Virus record (IMG/VR): IMGVR_UViG_3300043015_002491
Span: 1 to 64,000 of that record
DNA length: 64,000 nt
Source of the DNA: a virus
Strand: one strand, 5' to 3'
Part shown: piece after piece, positions 12,332 to 60,361 of the stretch
Position numbering within the stretch: position 1 is the first letter of the stretch
Layout: the number at the start of each line of letters is the position of its first letter
The notes under the pieces: model-generated
Database searches by the model: none
What the model was told of the DNA's origin: nothing
Seen by the model: only the letters and a program-made list of their open reading frames with translations
Program-made: the position numbers and the translations under genes

Positions 12332-13033
12332 TTACCACCACCAATACATACCTCTGGTTTTGTAAGAAGAATAAAACTCGTCTTCTAATTCACCATTGTT
12401 ATAGGTATTGATGATTTCTCTATTTTCTTTTCTGTGTTTCCCCTTAGCTTTACGTCTTTCAACTTTTCTCCACCATTTAGGTACAGACCAACCACCATAC
12501 GGATTATCGCTGATATTATAAAGCTTAGACTTTAACTCAGCTTCTTCTTGGTAAAGTATTTCATCATGTTCTTTATAGTGTGTTATATAAGAACGTGATT
12601 TCTTCATCACCAATTTCCAAGGTTCAATATCAACCTTGTATTTAGGTCTCCACCAGTAATTTTTATCACTAGTATCTAACCTAAAATATTTTTGAAGACA
12701 TGACGGATAACTTAAATAAGTAGATTCATCAATTTTCTTAAAGTAAGGTTTAATGTCTTGCCACTTATTATTGTTTCTCCATTCCTTAACCCTAAAGTCC
12801 TTTCTCTTAGACCAAACCTCAACACCTAGATTATCAATAATCCATTGTAAGATTTCACCATCTGGACTCTTAGCGATGTCTTCTCTTAATACCCACTCAC
12901 CATTATAGCCGTGGGGGATAGGCTTCTCCAATTCAATCCAAGCTTGGTTGCGTTTGTGTTGCCAGTTTTTGTCAAGCTCTTTCTTAGTTCTAATTAGAGC
13001 TTTTTCCTTTTCAAAATACTTATTTCTCTTCAT
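12332..13033 (-). CDS. Basic Trp-rich protein, unknown function
   Basis: 233 residues, very rich in Lys, Arg, Trp and Tyr (for example KYKVDIEPWKLVMKKSRSY, and GMYWWW at the end), suggesting nucleic-acid binding. No family recognised. Its start is unusual: a perfect AGGAGG is separated from the ATG by a 39-nt hairpin (13038-13076), leaving 4 nt between stem and ATG, so translation may depend on folding. Confidence 0.65.
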   Translation of the reverse strand: MKRNKYFEKEKALIRTKKELDKNWQHKRNQAWIELEKPIPHGYNGEWVLREDIAKSPDGEILQWIIDNLGVEVWSKRKDFRVKEWRNNNKWQDIKPYFKKIDESTYLSYPSCLQKYFRLDTSDKNYWWRPKYKVDIEPWKLVMKKSRSYITHYKEHDEILYQEEAELKSKLYNISDNPYGGWSVPKWWRKVERRKAKGKHRKENREIINTYNNGELEDEFYSSYKTRGMYWWW

Positions 13034-40749: not shown

Positions 40750-41910
40750 TTATAATAAATTTTTAAAATTTTCAATTTCCATTTTCTCAATAGCCTTACC
40801 CATTTCTGGTCCAGGCTTAACTCCTAACTCTCGTTGTACTTGGTCACCAGTTACACTCAATTCAAATTTAACAAAACTAGTGATTAACTCACCATTTAAC
40901 CTTGCAAGCATACCAAACTTAAGTATTTGAGTATCTTCAATACCAGACTTACTTTGTAACTTCTTAAACTTGTAAACTTGTTCTGGGTTTACGAATTGTT
41001 GTAAAGCAATTAGAAATGTAATAACCTTAACTTCTGATGAAGAATAAGTAAGCTTATTTAACTCCTTTGCAATAACATTAGGGTCATTATCCTTAAGTGT
41101 ATTAGCAATCACAATGATTGGGTCCTTATCGTTAACCCTATCTGTTTTACTAATCTTAAGACCTGGGAAAATTGATTCCCATAATTTGTAGTCATCAATA
41201 AGACTTAAGAAATGTTTAACATTCTTAGCCGTTTTAATCCCCTTTAATAACTCATCTCTGATTCTTTCTGGCGAAACACCTTCAAGACTGTTATCCTTCT
41301 TTAAAGCAGCATCTACAGCTGGGTCAAGCCCACTTCCGAATCTACCAGCGAATCTAATAGCTCTAAGTATTCTAAGTCTATCTTCACCGAATCTATCTTC
41401 AGCAGCACCAACAGTTCTAACAACACCATTCTTCAAGTCATCAATACCACCAACAAGGTCAACAACCTCACCAGTATCTATATCGTAAAATAATGCGTTA
41501 ATAGTTAAATCTCTTCTCTTAACATCGGTTTCAATATCTGTAAATCTAACAGCATCTGGTCTCCTACCACCAGATAGGTCTTCTCTAAATGTAGCAATTT
41601 CGTATTCATCTGAATCTGTGAATACATTGATTACACCAAAAGCTTTACCAGTTGGTAGTGTTTTAAACCCAGCATCAGCCATCATATCTTCAACCTTGTC
41701 TGGTACAGCATCAGTTGCGAGGTCATAATCTTTTGGTGTCTTTCCTAGTAATGCATCTCTAACAGCACCACCAACAACAAATAACTTATGTCCGTTTTTA
41801 ACGAAAACATCTTTAATTTGTCTAATATCATCTGGGATAGGCATGTTCATTTGCACCCTTTCTTCTCTTATGATATCTTCTCTAAGTATTTGTTTGATTT
41901 TATCTTTCAT
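40750..41910 (-). CDS. cca: CCA-adding tRNA nucleotidyltransferase with N-terminal tag
   Basis: 386 residues, class II. VVGGAVRDALLGKTPKDYDL near 44-63 holds GG and DxD; RRPDAVRF, VKRRDLTINAL near 130 and RLRILRAIRF near 175 complete the catalytic head. It builds or restores the CCA end. None of the tRNAs here clearly needs an encoded CCA, so the enzyme is useful. The tag MKDKIKQILRED with LRE suggests delivery in the virion. The ATG is 4 nt after TATATTTG (41915-41922). Confidence 0.92.
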   Translation of the reverse strand: MKDKIKQILREDIIREERVQMNMPIPDDIRQIKDVFVKNGHKLFVVGGAVRDALLGKTPKDYDLATDAVPDKVEDMMADAGFKTLPTGKAFGVINVFTDSDEYEIATFREDLSGGRRPDAVRFTDIETDVKRRDLTINALFYDIDTGEVVDLVGGIDDLKNGVVRTVGAAEDRFGEDRLRILRAIRFAGRFGSGLDPAVDAALKKDNSLEGVSPERIRDELLKGIKTAKNVKHFLSLIDDYKLWESIFPGLKISKTDRVNDKDPIIVIANTLKDNDPNVIAKELNKLTYSSSEVKVITFLIALQQFVNPEQVYKFKKLQSKSGIEDTQILKFGMLARLNGELITSFVKFELSVTGDQVQRELGVKPGPEMGKAIEKMEIENFKNLL

Positions 41911-50727: not shown

Positions 50728-50783
50728 TCACCAAAAATGGTGTGCAACAGTCACTACGTGCAAGTGAGTTGATTTCGACTGTC

Positions 50784-50803
50784 TAGCGGGGGAGGGAATC
50801 GAA
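50784..50803 (+). repeat. Right 20-bp direct repeat in tRNA-Met
   Basis: Same 20 bases as 49969-49988; here they are the functional tRNA 3' end. Confidence 0.8.
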
Positions 50804-50855
50804 CCCCCGACCTCAAGGTTATGAGCCTTGCGAGCTACCTCTGCTCTACCCCGCA
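50784..50855 (-). tRNA. Initiator tRNA-Met(CAU)
   Basis: Acceptor TGCGGGG/CCCCGCT with T-T at the first pair, D arm GAGCAGAGGTAGCTC, anticodon arm CAAGG-CTCATAA-CCTTG, T arm GGGGGTTCGATTCCCTC. Regular size. Its last 20 bases are repeated at 49969. Confidence 0.9.
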
Positions 50856-50867
50856 ATATTAGTTCTT

Positions 50868-50930
50868 CGACTAGGACTTTCACCTAAAGATACTACTTAC
50901 GTTAGTATTCGAAGAATTGTACTTAAACGT
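50868..50930 (-). other. Three-way junction RNA candidate
   Basis: TTCTTCGA/TCGAAGAA closes two hairpins, ATACTA-ACGTAAG-TAGTAT and TAGG-TGAAAGT-CCTA. Similar plan to 16866-16945. On the plus strand the first loop would read CTTACGT. Confidence 0.4.
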
Positions 50931-50962: not shown

Positions 50963-51022
50963 CAGAATGGTATCTTTACAATAAATATTCAAAATTTAAC
51001 TTTAACTTGCTGTAACCATTCT
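50963..51022 (-). ncRNA. CAGCAA-stem element E
   Basis: 60 nt: AGAATGG/CCATTCT, TTACAGCAA, arm TAAAT-TTTGAAT-ATTTA (loop reads UGA, Ser). No T arm; G follows the stem. Confidence 0.55.
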
Positions 51023-51106: not shown

Positions 51107-51187
51107 TGGGTCTTCTAGGAATCACACCTAGTATTAACATTACAAGGAGGTGAAGTGAGTGTAACGTCAATATATTTATTAAGACCC
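51107..51187 (-). ncRNA. tRNA-like RNA with anti-Shine-Dalgarno loop
   Basis: Perfect 7-bp acceptor GGGTCTT/AAGACCC and T arm CTAGG-TGTGATT-CCTAG. The anticodon arm is a 7-bp stem (CGTTACA/TGTAATG) with a 15-nt loop CTCACTTCACCTCCT, so the RNA reads TTCACCTCCTTG, the sequence of the 16S rRNA 3' tail that binds Shine-Dalgarno sites. No anticodon can be assigned. Confidence 0.65.
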
Positions 51188-51217
51188 TTAATATCTTTTT
51201 TTTTTGTCTTTCAAGAT

Positions 51218-51227
51218 GTCAATGAAC
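51218..51227 (-). promoter_or_regulatory. boxA-like site
   Basis: GTTCATTGAC on the minus strand between promoter 51248 and the tRNA-like RNA. Confidence 0.42.
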
Positions 51228-51247: not shown

Positions 51248-51278
51248 CAAATATATAGATATATTTTTGTTTTGTCAA
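51248..51278 (-). promoter_or_regulatory. Promoter of RNA cluster 6
   Basis: TTGACA, 17-nt spacer, TATATTTG. Confidence 0.78.
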
Positions 51279-51285
51279 GTTTTTT

Positions 51286-51522
51286 TTAAACTTTTTTTTC
51301 TAAAATATTAAAATCATCTGTATATTCCTCTATTATCACATAAATATGCTGTGTATCAGAAAAATTATAAACAACATTTACAACCCTATAATATTTATCA
51401 TACTCAGTTAAAAATATTAATTCGTGAGTCCTTGGTATGGCGGTAACCTTCATACTTTGTTTAACAATATTCCATTTCTCATCAAGTATTGTTACTTCAT
51501 GTTTTTTAAACCATTTAAACAT
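51286..51522 (-). CDS. Small protein, unknown
   Basis: 78 residues, beta-rich (MFKWFKKHEVTILDEK...). No family recognised. Its stop is just before the promoter of the RNA cluster. Confidence 0.58.
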   Translation of the reverse strand: MFKWFKKHEVTILDEKWNIVKQSMKVTAIPRTHELIFLTEYDKYYRVVNVVYNFSDTQHIYVIIEEYTDDFNILEKKV

Positions 51523-52663: not shown

Positions 52664-52701
52664 TTTCCATCTGGCGAAATCAGAATGGAATGCTTGAGCA
52701 G

Positions 52702-53070
52702 TGGAGTTGCTCGGATTCGAACCGAGGTCTTACTTACTCATAAAGAGCTTTCTACATGCTTATCTGGTTTCTAATTCCAGCAAAGTTTAACAGTTCCCTT
52801 ATTTTAGTAGTTCGTTTTACTGATAACTAATCTTCTACCCTTATTTTAACACCTTTGGTTGGTCGTTCCTGTGGGTTTCCCCAGTGCATTACTCTGTTAG
52901 GCGAATGCTACCTCTCCTACACCTACTTCTACAGAAGCAGTGTCAAGGAAGTTTTCAGCGATGTCAAATTCGTTTCCATCTAAAAATTTGATAGGTAATT
53001 AAAGTGTTTCCAATCTAACACTGCATGCTTACTAATCACGACTATAAGCAATCAATAGCCAGTCAACCCC
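52702..53070 (-). ncRNA. ssrA: tmRNA (ssrA)
   Basis: 369 nt. Acceptor GGGGTTG/CAACTCC, T arm CTCGGTTCGAATCCGAG, and AAGCATGTAGAAAGC near the 3' end, close to E. coli tmRNA. A tag frame 52897-52977 starts GNEFDIAENF and ends GEVAFA then TAA, 26 codons, which is long. tmRNA frees stalled ribosomes and marks the broken protein. It has its own promoter, boxA site (53077-53085) and terminator. CCA is not encoded. Confidence 0.88.
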
Positions 53071-58909: not shown

Positions 58910-60361
58910 TTAAACACGAATTGCTTCGTATCTTTCTGAACTAATAATATTCATCATCATTCCGTAAGGAGTGATATCATTACCAGCTAATAAGCTTGTT
59001 AATAACGCTGGGCTGAAACCAGACACCAACGCAGTACCTTGCTTATCGAATTGTACTGGGTTATTGTCATTTCTTGATTGAATGTTCCAGTATACAACCT
59101 TTGGCATTGTGTACCCAGCATCTGCATACATGTTTTCAATCATTCTTTGAGCAGTTGGATTCCAATCAGAATCACCTCTCCAACCATCGCCAGTAGCTTG
59201 GTTGAATTCCATATCCGAAAGGATAAGAATCATAGTTGGCATTTCTGACTCAGCAACATTACTAGCTTTTGCTTTTTGAAGCAATACCTTGAATGTCTTT
59301 TCTAAGTCTGTACTACCACCCCATTCTGCTCTAGATAGTTGGTTGAATCTGTCTCTTAAATCACCCTTTAAGTATTGTAACTTTGGGTTAGAGTGGAAAG
59401 TGAAGAATGCATCCTTGAATGGTCCTTCATTTCTCTCAGAGATATATAAACCTAATGAGATAGCTACATCCATACAGCTGATATTTGCGTTACCGCCAGC
59501 TGACACACCCATTGAGCCAGAAACGTCTACCACTGGTAAAACTCTTTCTTTATTACCTTCCATGTAGTTAGGTAAAGCTTTCCATTGTTCAACAGCACCA
59601 TCAGCTGAACCATATTTCAAGTTCTTAGTAATGTCGTATGGATATACAGCACCAGCATTAATCTTAGTTTCACCCTTTGAAAGTGAATCCAAATATGCTT
59701 GGAATCTGCTACCATCATTCTTAGAGAATGCCTTCATGTAATCAGACATTGCCTTAGATGGTACGTGTTCGTATGTAATCGCACCGAATTCTCTAGCACA
59801 CATTAATTGCTCAACAGTGTTAGATAACTCAGAAAGCATCTTTCTATACGCCTTTGGTGTTAACCCTAAGTGTTTTCTTAAGGTACTAGCCCATCTCTTC
59901 TTTTCCCTATTCTTAGTGTTACCTCTTGGCATCCACTTAGCCGCAAGTCCATTACCATCTTTTAACGCTTTTTCAATTTCGTTAAGAGCTTCTTTCTCTA
60001 ATTTAGTACCAACTAATATTAAATAGTCATCATACCTACCGTACTCAGCAATAAGTCCTATGTTCTTCTTAAGTGCTGAAGTTTTAGTATTAGCAAGATA
60101 AGTTAAAATATCTCTGAAAGTACCTCTTTCACCAGCTCCACCTCTAACGTCTCTAGCCCAGAATAAAATCTTCATAGCTGTTAACGAATCTTCAGCGAAA
60201 GCTTTAGAAAATGCATTAATCTTTCTTTGTTTATCTTGCCCTCTTAAAGCACCAATTTGGAAAAATAGGTCTACACAAGAATTAAGTGTAGTTGAATTTG
60301 TTGTCATACCATTTTCAGTAACAGTATCTTCAGTTCTTAAAGCGTCAATTAAATTTGCCAT
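58910..60361 (-). CDS. Ro60/DUF2828-like vWA protein
   Basis: 483 residues. The N-terminal half is helical HEAT-like with FWARDVRGGAGERGTFRDIL near 67-86 and IAEYGRYDDYLIL; the C-terminal half is a vWA domain with a complete MIDAS: PVVDVSGSMG near 278, GGSTDLEKTF near 350 and LILSDMEF near 385. This is the plan of TROVE (Ro60) and DUF2828 proteins. Ro60 holds misfolded RNAs and Y RNA and can gate PNPase. Promoter TTGACA-N17-TATATTTG at 60402-60432. Structured RNA G follows. Confidence 0.8.
   Translation of the reverse strand: MANLIDALRTEDTVTENGMTTNSTTLNSCVDLFFQIGALRGQDKQRKINAFSKAFAEDSLTAMKILFWARDVRGGAGERGTFRDILTYLANTKTSALKKNIGLIAEYGRYDDYLILVGTKLEKEALNEIEKALKDGNGLAAKWMPRGNTKNREKKRWASTLRKHLGLTPKAYRKMLSELSNTVEQLMCAREFGAITYEHVPSKAMSDYMKAFSKNDGSRFQAYLDSLSKGETKINAGAVYPYDITKNLKYGSADGAVEQWKALPNYMEGNKERVLPVVDVSGSMGVSAGGNANISCMDVAISLGLYISERNEGPFKDAFFTFHSNPKLQYLKGDLRDRFNQLSRAEWGGSTDLEKTFKVLLQKAKASNVAESEMPTMILILSDMEFNQATGDGWRGDSDWNPTAQRMIENMYADAGYTMPKVVYWNIQSRNDNNPVQFDKQGTALVSGFSPALLTSLLAGNDITPYGMMMNIISSERYEAIRV

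What the first reader, a model, noticed from the sequence alone, without database searches (positions are those of the whole stretch)
51107..51187. tRNA-shaped RNA carrying an anti-Shine-Dalgarno loop
A perfect acceptor stem and T arm frame an anticodon arm whose 15-nt loop contains CACCTCCTT, the ribosomal anti-SD sequence. Such an RNA could pair with SD sites such as AGGAGG of the gene at 13033, or compete with the 16S tail. It is third-party to decoding, as no anticodon is present.
Basis: partly seen in the sequence, partly recalled or inferred. Interest (0 to 1): 0.83.

Follow-up and report, generated by a model that had tools for sequence, protein, structure and literature searches.

The report
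Phage tRNA-like RNA with anti-Shine-Dalgarno loop
A large phage of the Bacteroidetes group (host inferred) encodes a tRNA-shaped RNA with no anticodon whose loop copies the tail of the bacterial ribosome's 16S RNA; a second, distantly related phage carries the same eight letters in a different RNA at the same genomic spot, so the match is unlikely to be chance, but closer relatives have other loops and its job is untested.

Summary
It sits in a non-coding RNA operon between tmRNA and tRNA-fMet. In this record and 50 related ones ACCTCCTT occurs at 77 distinct places, nearly all inside genes. Only one other, on two near-identical contigs (L134, L198), tips a long stem of a tRNA-like RNA; it lies 327 nt upstream of tRNA-fMet, against 300 here. 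The eight letters are 16S nt 1534-1541; the two RNAs otherwise hardly align. Three relatives keep a tRNA-like RNA there with other loops, so the anti-SD loop recurs but is not conserved. Likelier partners are the few SD-bearing host mRNAs, above all rpsU (bS21), or the 30S platform; L081 has a bS21 gene just upstream of its version. The phage also encodes a Ro60-fold protein and Y-RNA-like RNAs, so the element may belong to a Ro60/Y-RNA-type system. Function untested.

The parts
51107..51187 (-). tRNA-like RNA (TLS-A): acceptor 51187-51181/51114-51108, linker 51180-51173, central stem 51172-51160/51144-51132, T arm 51131-51115, unpaired A at 51107 followed by CA
51145..51159 (-). 15-nt terminal loop CTCACTTCACCTCCT; the anti-SD octamer ACCTCCTT spans 51151-51144
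51248..51278 (-). promoter-like TTGACA (51278-51273) and TATATTTG (51255-51248), Bacteroidetes-like form; same arrangement upstream in L081, L100 and others
   Evidence: read; consensus recalled, not tested
51210..51227 (-). GTTCATTGACATCTTGAA, resembling a boxA antitermination signal
   Evidence: resemblance recalled, not tested
50965..51021 (-). stem RNA GAATGGT-TACAGCAA...-ACCATTC-TGA, one of six copies in the window ('CAGCAA' family, Y-RNA-like)
50864..50915 (-). second small tRNA-like element (acceptor TCTTCGA/TCGAAGA, T arm TTAGG TGAAAGT CCTAG) directly before tRNA-fMet
50783..50856 (-). tRNA-Met (CAT), probably initiator, end of the RNA operon
51286..51522 (-). small conserved ORF upstream of the operon promoter; in L081 the bS21 gene precedes its homologue
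52699..53070 (-). tmRNA, syntenic anchor
58910..60361 (-). Ro60/TROVE-fold protein (DUF2828 + DUF7788, vWA)

Best explanation
Shown by sequence: a compact tRNA-like RNA without an anticodon is encoded in a non-coding RNA operon of a phage whose genes lack SD sequences; the end of its central hairpin shows the 16S 3'-tail octamer ACCUCCUU, and a second phage lineage does the same at the same locus. Inferred: the tRNA-like body (acceptor, T arm, A then C at the 3' end, phage CCA-adding enzyme) gives processing and stability, and the open loop works as a decoy of the 16S tail. The most likely mode is base pairing with the rare SD-bearing host mRNAs, first of all rpsU (bS21), whose product hides the anti-SD in Bacteroidetes ribosomes, so that the phage interferes with bS21 autoregulation and the state of the 30S platform.
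For: Fold z -4.21; seven loop bases of the octamer unpaired with probability 0.98-1.00. Of 77 distinct ACCTCCTT sites in this record and 50 related records, stems of 12 bp or more occur only here, in the L134/L198 RNA and in one terminator-like hairpin (L311). Chance of the octamer in one 15-nt loop 1.2e-4. Same place relative to tRNA-fMet: -300 and -327. The L134 RNA scores 31.1 bits with Rfam tRNA, gathering score 29. Phage genes avoid SDs (2 of 137 with GAGG, none with GGAG), so host mRNAs are likelier partners. In Bacteroidia the anti-SD is sequestered by bS21/bS18/bS6 and in most Flavobacteriales rpsU alone has a strong, extended SD (PMC9976891). A bS21 gene lies just upstream of the operon in L081 and in the same locus in L086. 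The loop pairs with an rpsU-like SD at -17.6 kcal/mol by duplexfold, 16S tail -18.2. A CCA-adding enzyme is encoded at 40750-41910.
Against: L081 (80% identical Ro60-like protein) keeps acceptor and T arm but has loop ...CTAACCACCCCTTTTC...; L114 has TTCG and L135 GTAA at the tip. The covariance model of the L134/L114/L135 type does not find the window RNA, so homology of the two anti-SD RNAs rests on position, the T stem and the octamer. In L198 the predicted fold leaves only CCUCC fully open. No expression data, no identified host, no host rpsU leader examined.
Confidence: 0.38

Rival explanations
1. The tRNA-like body is what matters: a partner RNA of the phage Ro60-like protein, or an RNase P/Z processing module of the operon. 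The terminal loop is free to vary and the anti-SD letters carry no function.
For: Three relatives keep a tRNA-like RNA here with unrelated loops. The other tRNA-like elements in these operons also lack anticodons and have short, varied loops. The phage encodes a Ro60-fold protein and a YrlA-like permuted tRNA module.
Against: Two lineages share exactly ACCTCCTT in loops of otherwise barely alignable RNAs; chance per loop about 1e-4.
Confidence: 0.36
2. Ribosome-directed decoy: the loop occupies the bS21/bS18/bS6 pocket that normally holds the 16S tail, freeing the real anti-SD, or enters 30S assembly.
For: Exact copy of 16S nt 1534-1541 in both lineages; anti-SD sequestration is a feature of Bacteroidia; bS21 gene beside the locus in L081 and L086.
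Against: This phage's own mRNAs have no SDs to profit from a freed anti-SD. No structural test of pocket fit.
Confidence: 0.13
3. Decayed tRNA gene in a tRNA-rich phage; the anti-SD is a leftover.
For: 31 ordinary tRNAs in the window; no D arm, odd T loop.
Against: Acceptor and T arm are perfectly paired; the L081 copy keeps both stems; the same design is found in several lineages with changed T-stem pairs (CTAGG/CCTAG, ACAGG/CCTGT, AAGGG/CCCTT).
Confidence: 0.08
4. The functional strand is the plus strand: AAGGAGGTGAA-GTG is an SD in front of a 44-codon ORF.
For: SD-like spacing to a GTG.
Against: 131 of 137 predicted genes are on the minus strand and lack SDs; the ORF runs into the operon promoter; the minus-strand fold is much better.
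Confidence: 0.03

Closest known systems
YrlA / bacterial Y RNAs with Ro60 (Rfam RF02553)
   Same: Non-coding RNAs with a tRNA-like module; this phage has a Ro60-fold protein and, elsewhere in the window, a YrlA-like module (17382-17444).
   Different: The element at 51107-51187 is not matched by the YrlA model; it has an ordinary acceptor/T-arm order and an anti-SD loop, a feature not described for YrlA as far as I know.
Staphylococcal C-rich/UCCC loop sRNAs (RsaE, RNAIII, RsaA)
   Same: Exposed pyrimidine loops complementary to SDs that block ribosome loading (RsaE: PMC9266662).
   Different: Those are host sRNAs in SD-using bacteria with no tRNA-like body; here the phage and its inferred hosts hardly use SDs.
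tRNA (Rfam RF00005) and tmRNA tRNA-like domain
   Same: 7-bp acceptor stacked on a 5-bp T arm, A then C at the 3' side; the tmRNA domain likewise lacks a paired D arm and has a long central helix.
   Different: No anticodon, no D arm, non-canonical T loop, 13-bp central stem, no message.
Phage T4 stable RNAs C and D (from memory)
   Same: Stable non-coding RNAs of unknown function inside a phage tRNA cluster.
   Different: No sequence comparison made; no anti-SD loop known to me.

Membership tests
tRNA (RF00005) | Score above the gathering threshold | tested here: not met
   No tRNA match at 51107-51187 at the gathering score or at E up to 10; the L134 and L114 counterparts do score 31.1 and 39.6
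tRNA (RF00005) | Anticodon in a 7-nt loop | tested here: not met
   15-nt loop on a 13-bp stem
tRNA (RF00005) | 7-bp acceptor and 5-bp T arm directly stacked | tested here: met
YrlA Y RNA (RF02553) | Match to the YrlA model at 51107-51187 | tested here: not met
   the YrlA-like match is at 17382-17444 and is below its gathering score
YrlA Y RNA (RF02553) | Bound by a Ro60 protein | not testable with these tools
   A Ro60-fold protein is encoded 7.7 kb away; binding not tested
SD-sequestering antisense sRNA | Accessible anti-SD seed | tested here: met
   unpaired probability near 1 for ACCUCCU
SD-sequestering antisense sRNA | SD-bearing target mRNAs | tested here: inconclusive
   None among phage genes; a 12-nt internal match in the phage gene at 102961-107625 is not at a start site; host unknown
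tmRNA | tmRNA model match or message part | tested here: not met
   The phage tmRNA is a separate gene at 52699-53070

The most novel reading that the evidence does not exclude
A phage-made mimic of the 16S rRNA 3' tail, mounted on a tRNA-like scaffold, manipulates anti-SD sequestration and bS21 autoregulation in Bacteroidetes hosts, as part of a Ro60/Y-RNA-type non-coding RNA system in large phages.
Probability: 0.27. Interest if true: 0.87.

Novelty: new variant of a known kind. Interest (0 to 1): 0.64.

Why it matters
Bacteroidetes keep the anti-SD but hide it and hardly use SDs; why they keep it is an open question with rpsU autoregulation as the main answer so far. A phage RNA that copies the anti-SD, at a locus where relatives carry bS21, would point to phages acting on that switch and gives a small RNA that can be tested directly. 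The surrounding operon (anticodon-less tRNA-like RNAs, Y-RNA-like RNAs, a Ro60-fold protein nearby) also appears undescribed; I found no paper on it in the held library.

Tried and rejected
Exact 15-mer scan of viral contigs (77 stretches): none shares the structure. A loose CCTCC + cloverleaf scan gave no excess over control 5-mers, so only long stems count. Pattern for the L134-type internal motif: four unrelated chance hits. Covariance model R1: the further hits are ordinary tRNAs or uncertain tRNA-like genes. YrlA hits in relatives: the one I read in full (L371) is two neighbouring tRNAs. Phage bS21 in bacterial genomes: only distant non-Bacteroidetes hits, so no host rpsU leader was obtained. 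The alternative Chryseobacterium-type anti-SD (UCUCA, PMC9976891) does not explain the L081 loop. An SD-like tRNA loop in L379/L380 was dropped because ARAGORN reads it as tRNA-Val. Papers: nothing on tRNA-like RNAs with anti-SD loops in phages.

Full report
What is there. The window is part of a 122,509-base virus record. The RNA lies on the minus strand, 51187 to 51107: acceptor GGGTCTT/AAGACCC, an 8-nt linker, a 13-bp stem, a 15-nt loop CTCACTTCACCTCCT, and a T arm CTAGG-TGTGATT-CCTAG; the acceptor is followed by A and CA. Its predicted energy is -25.9 kcal/mol, z -4.21, with 1 of 200 shuffles as good. It has no D arm and no anticodon, and neither ARAGORN nor Rfam's tRNA model finds it. The finding is therefore correct in what it saw, with the corrections that the arm is 13 bp long and the T loop is not canonical.

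Setting. Upstream on the same strand are tmRNA (52699-53070), small ORFs, and a promoter-like TTGACA...TATATTTG (51278-51248), a form I know from Bacteroidetes. Downstream come a stem RNA with CAGCAA (51021-50965), a second small tRNA-like element (50915-50864) and tRNA-Met(CAT) at 50856-50783. Upstream regions of 137 predicted genes are A-rich and SD-poor: no GGAG and 2 GAGG, against 4 and 6 in a control window. This fits a Bacteroidetes host; the host itself is inferred, not shown.

Relatives. The protein at 58910-60361 led to 69 relatives in viral contigs. L081, 80% identical in that protein, has the same RNA at the same place with identical acceptor and almost identical T arm (TGAAACT loop), but its central loop reads CTAACCACCCCTTTTC. 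L114 and L135 have tRNA-like RNAs at the corresponding place with tips TTCG and GTAA; L114 scores 39.6 bits with Rfam tRNA. L134 and the near-identical L198 have one with a D-like hairpin, a long central stem with tip AACCTCCTT, a variable arm and T arm CTAGG-TTCAAGT-CCTAG (L198), 31.1 bits with Rfam tRNA for the L134 copy. The T stems change as pairs between these records. In L085, L086 and L100 no such RNA was seen in the part read.

Is the anti-SD more than chance? The 9-mer alone is not remarkable in 64 kb. In this record and 50 related records there are 77 distinct ACCTCCTT sites; those with stems of 12 bp or more are the window RNA, the L134/L198 RNA and one terminator-like hairpin. The chance of the octamer in a given 15-nt loop is about 1.2e-4. 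The two RNAs lie 300 and 327 nt upstream of tRNA-fMet yet share little sequence beyond the octamer and the T stem, and model R1 does not find the window RNA. ACCUCCUU is 16S nt 1534-1541 in E. coli numbering, the stretch used to define SDs in Bacteroidia (the numbering of the letters is from my own knowledge). I conclude that the letters have probably been kept or reacquired by selection, with the caveat that the first example was chosen after the fact and the second is one lineage.

What it could do. In Bacteroidia the anti-SD is sequestered by bS21, bS18 and bS6, and in most Flavobacteriales only rpsU has a strong SD (PMC9976891). A bS21 gene (L081:12947-13132, PF01165 E 1.8e-14) lies just upstream of the RNA operon in L081, and another in the same locus in L086; phages of Bacteroidetes with bS21 are known (PMC9723584). 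I therefore favour an action on rpsU or on the 30S platform: pairing with rpsU at confidence 0.38, the platform variant at 0.13, against a purely structural role of the tRNA-like body at 0.36. All of the mechanism is inference.

Wider system. The relatives' marker protein is DUF2828 + DUF7788; its predicted structure (mean pLDDT 81) matches Ro60/TROVE proteins over about 400 residues (Z 17.6, rmsd 4.6 for 9kop; Foldseek E 3.3e-9), including Ro60 of Thermus phage phiLo. The window also has a YrlA-like permuted tRNA module (17382-17444, 42.3 bits, E 5.3e-6 over the window, below the gathering score of 69) that lies inside one of the CAGCAA stems. The CAGCAA stem family is strongly enriched over permuted or altered motifs (37 against 0-5 for motifs that do not overlap it). 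Ro/TROVE proteins in jumbo phages were noted before, with a tRNA-like partner known in cells (PMC7824862). The tRNA-like element under study may belong to this system; binding is not tested.

Verdict. Real and unusual; the anti-SD loop recurs in two lineages but is not conserved among closer relatives; function open. New variant of a known kind.

Noticed in passing
window minus 51021, 49852, 36950, 19962, 17339, 15190; L081-L137: Repeated RNA family: 5' AAAG, 6-8 bp stem, then U(U/A)CAGCAA, variable part, stem, UGA. 37 hits for CAGCAA against 0-10 for altered motifs. One L090 copy matches Rfam Dictyostelium class I RNA (27.5 bits, E 0.014, below threshold), an RNA described as unique to social amoebae (PMC7919456).
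   Followed up: partly
window 17369-17490 minus: YrlA-like permuted tRNA module (T arm, acceptor hairpin, D arm) enclosed in a GAATGG/CCATTC CAGCAA stem; E 5.3e-6 over the window, below the gathering score.
   Followed up: partly
window 58910-60361 minus: DUF2828/DUF7788 protein predicted to have the Ro60/TROVE fold; the CAGCAA stem RNAs may be its Y RNAs.
   Followed up: partly
L081:12947-13132, L086:18753-18947: bS21 genes directly upstream of the RNA operon; none found in the window's record.
   Followed up: partly
L104, L105, L133, L137, L088, L090 just before tRNA-fMet: Cloverleaf RNAs with acceptor, D and T arms but tiny loops in place of the anticodon, 3' end ACA or ACT.
   Followed up: partly
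L100:18415-19226: tRNA-fMet interrupted in the anticodon loop by an insert with an ORF, probably an intron with a homing endonuclease.
   Followed up: no
window minus 17265-17105: A tRNA-like gene with a long insert holding another TTCAGCAA motif.
   Followed up: no
window, 31 tRNAs: No tRNA-Gly among them although nearly all other amino acids are covered.
   Followed up: no
106690-106701 of the 122,509-base record (outside the window): 12-nt perfect complement of the loop region inside the phage's own 1554-codon gene (minus strand), not at a start site.
   Followed up: no
L090, L093, L095, L088, L091 upstream of tRNA-fMet: A large (about 280 nt) conserved RNA enclosed by an AAAGATGAT.../ATCATCTTGA stem with TTCTGCAA, in place of the tRNA-like RNA.
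   Followed up: no
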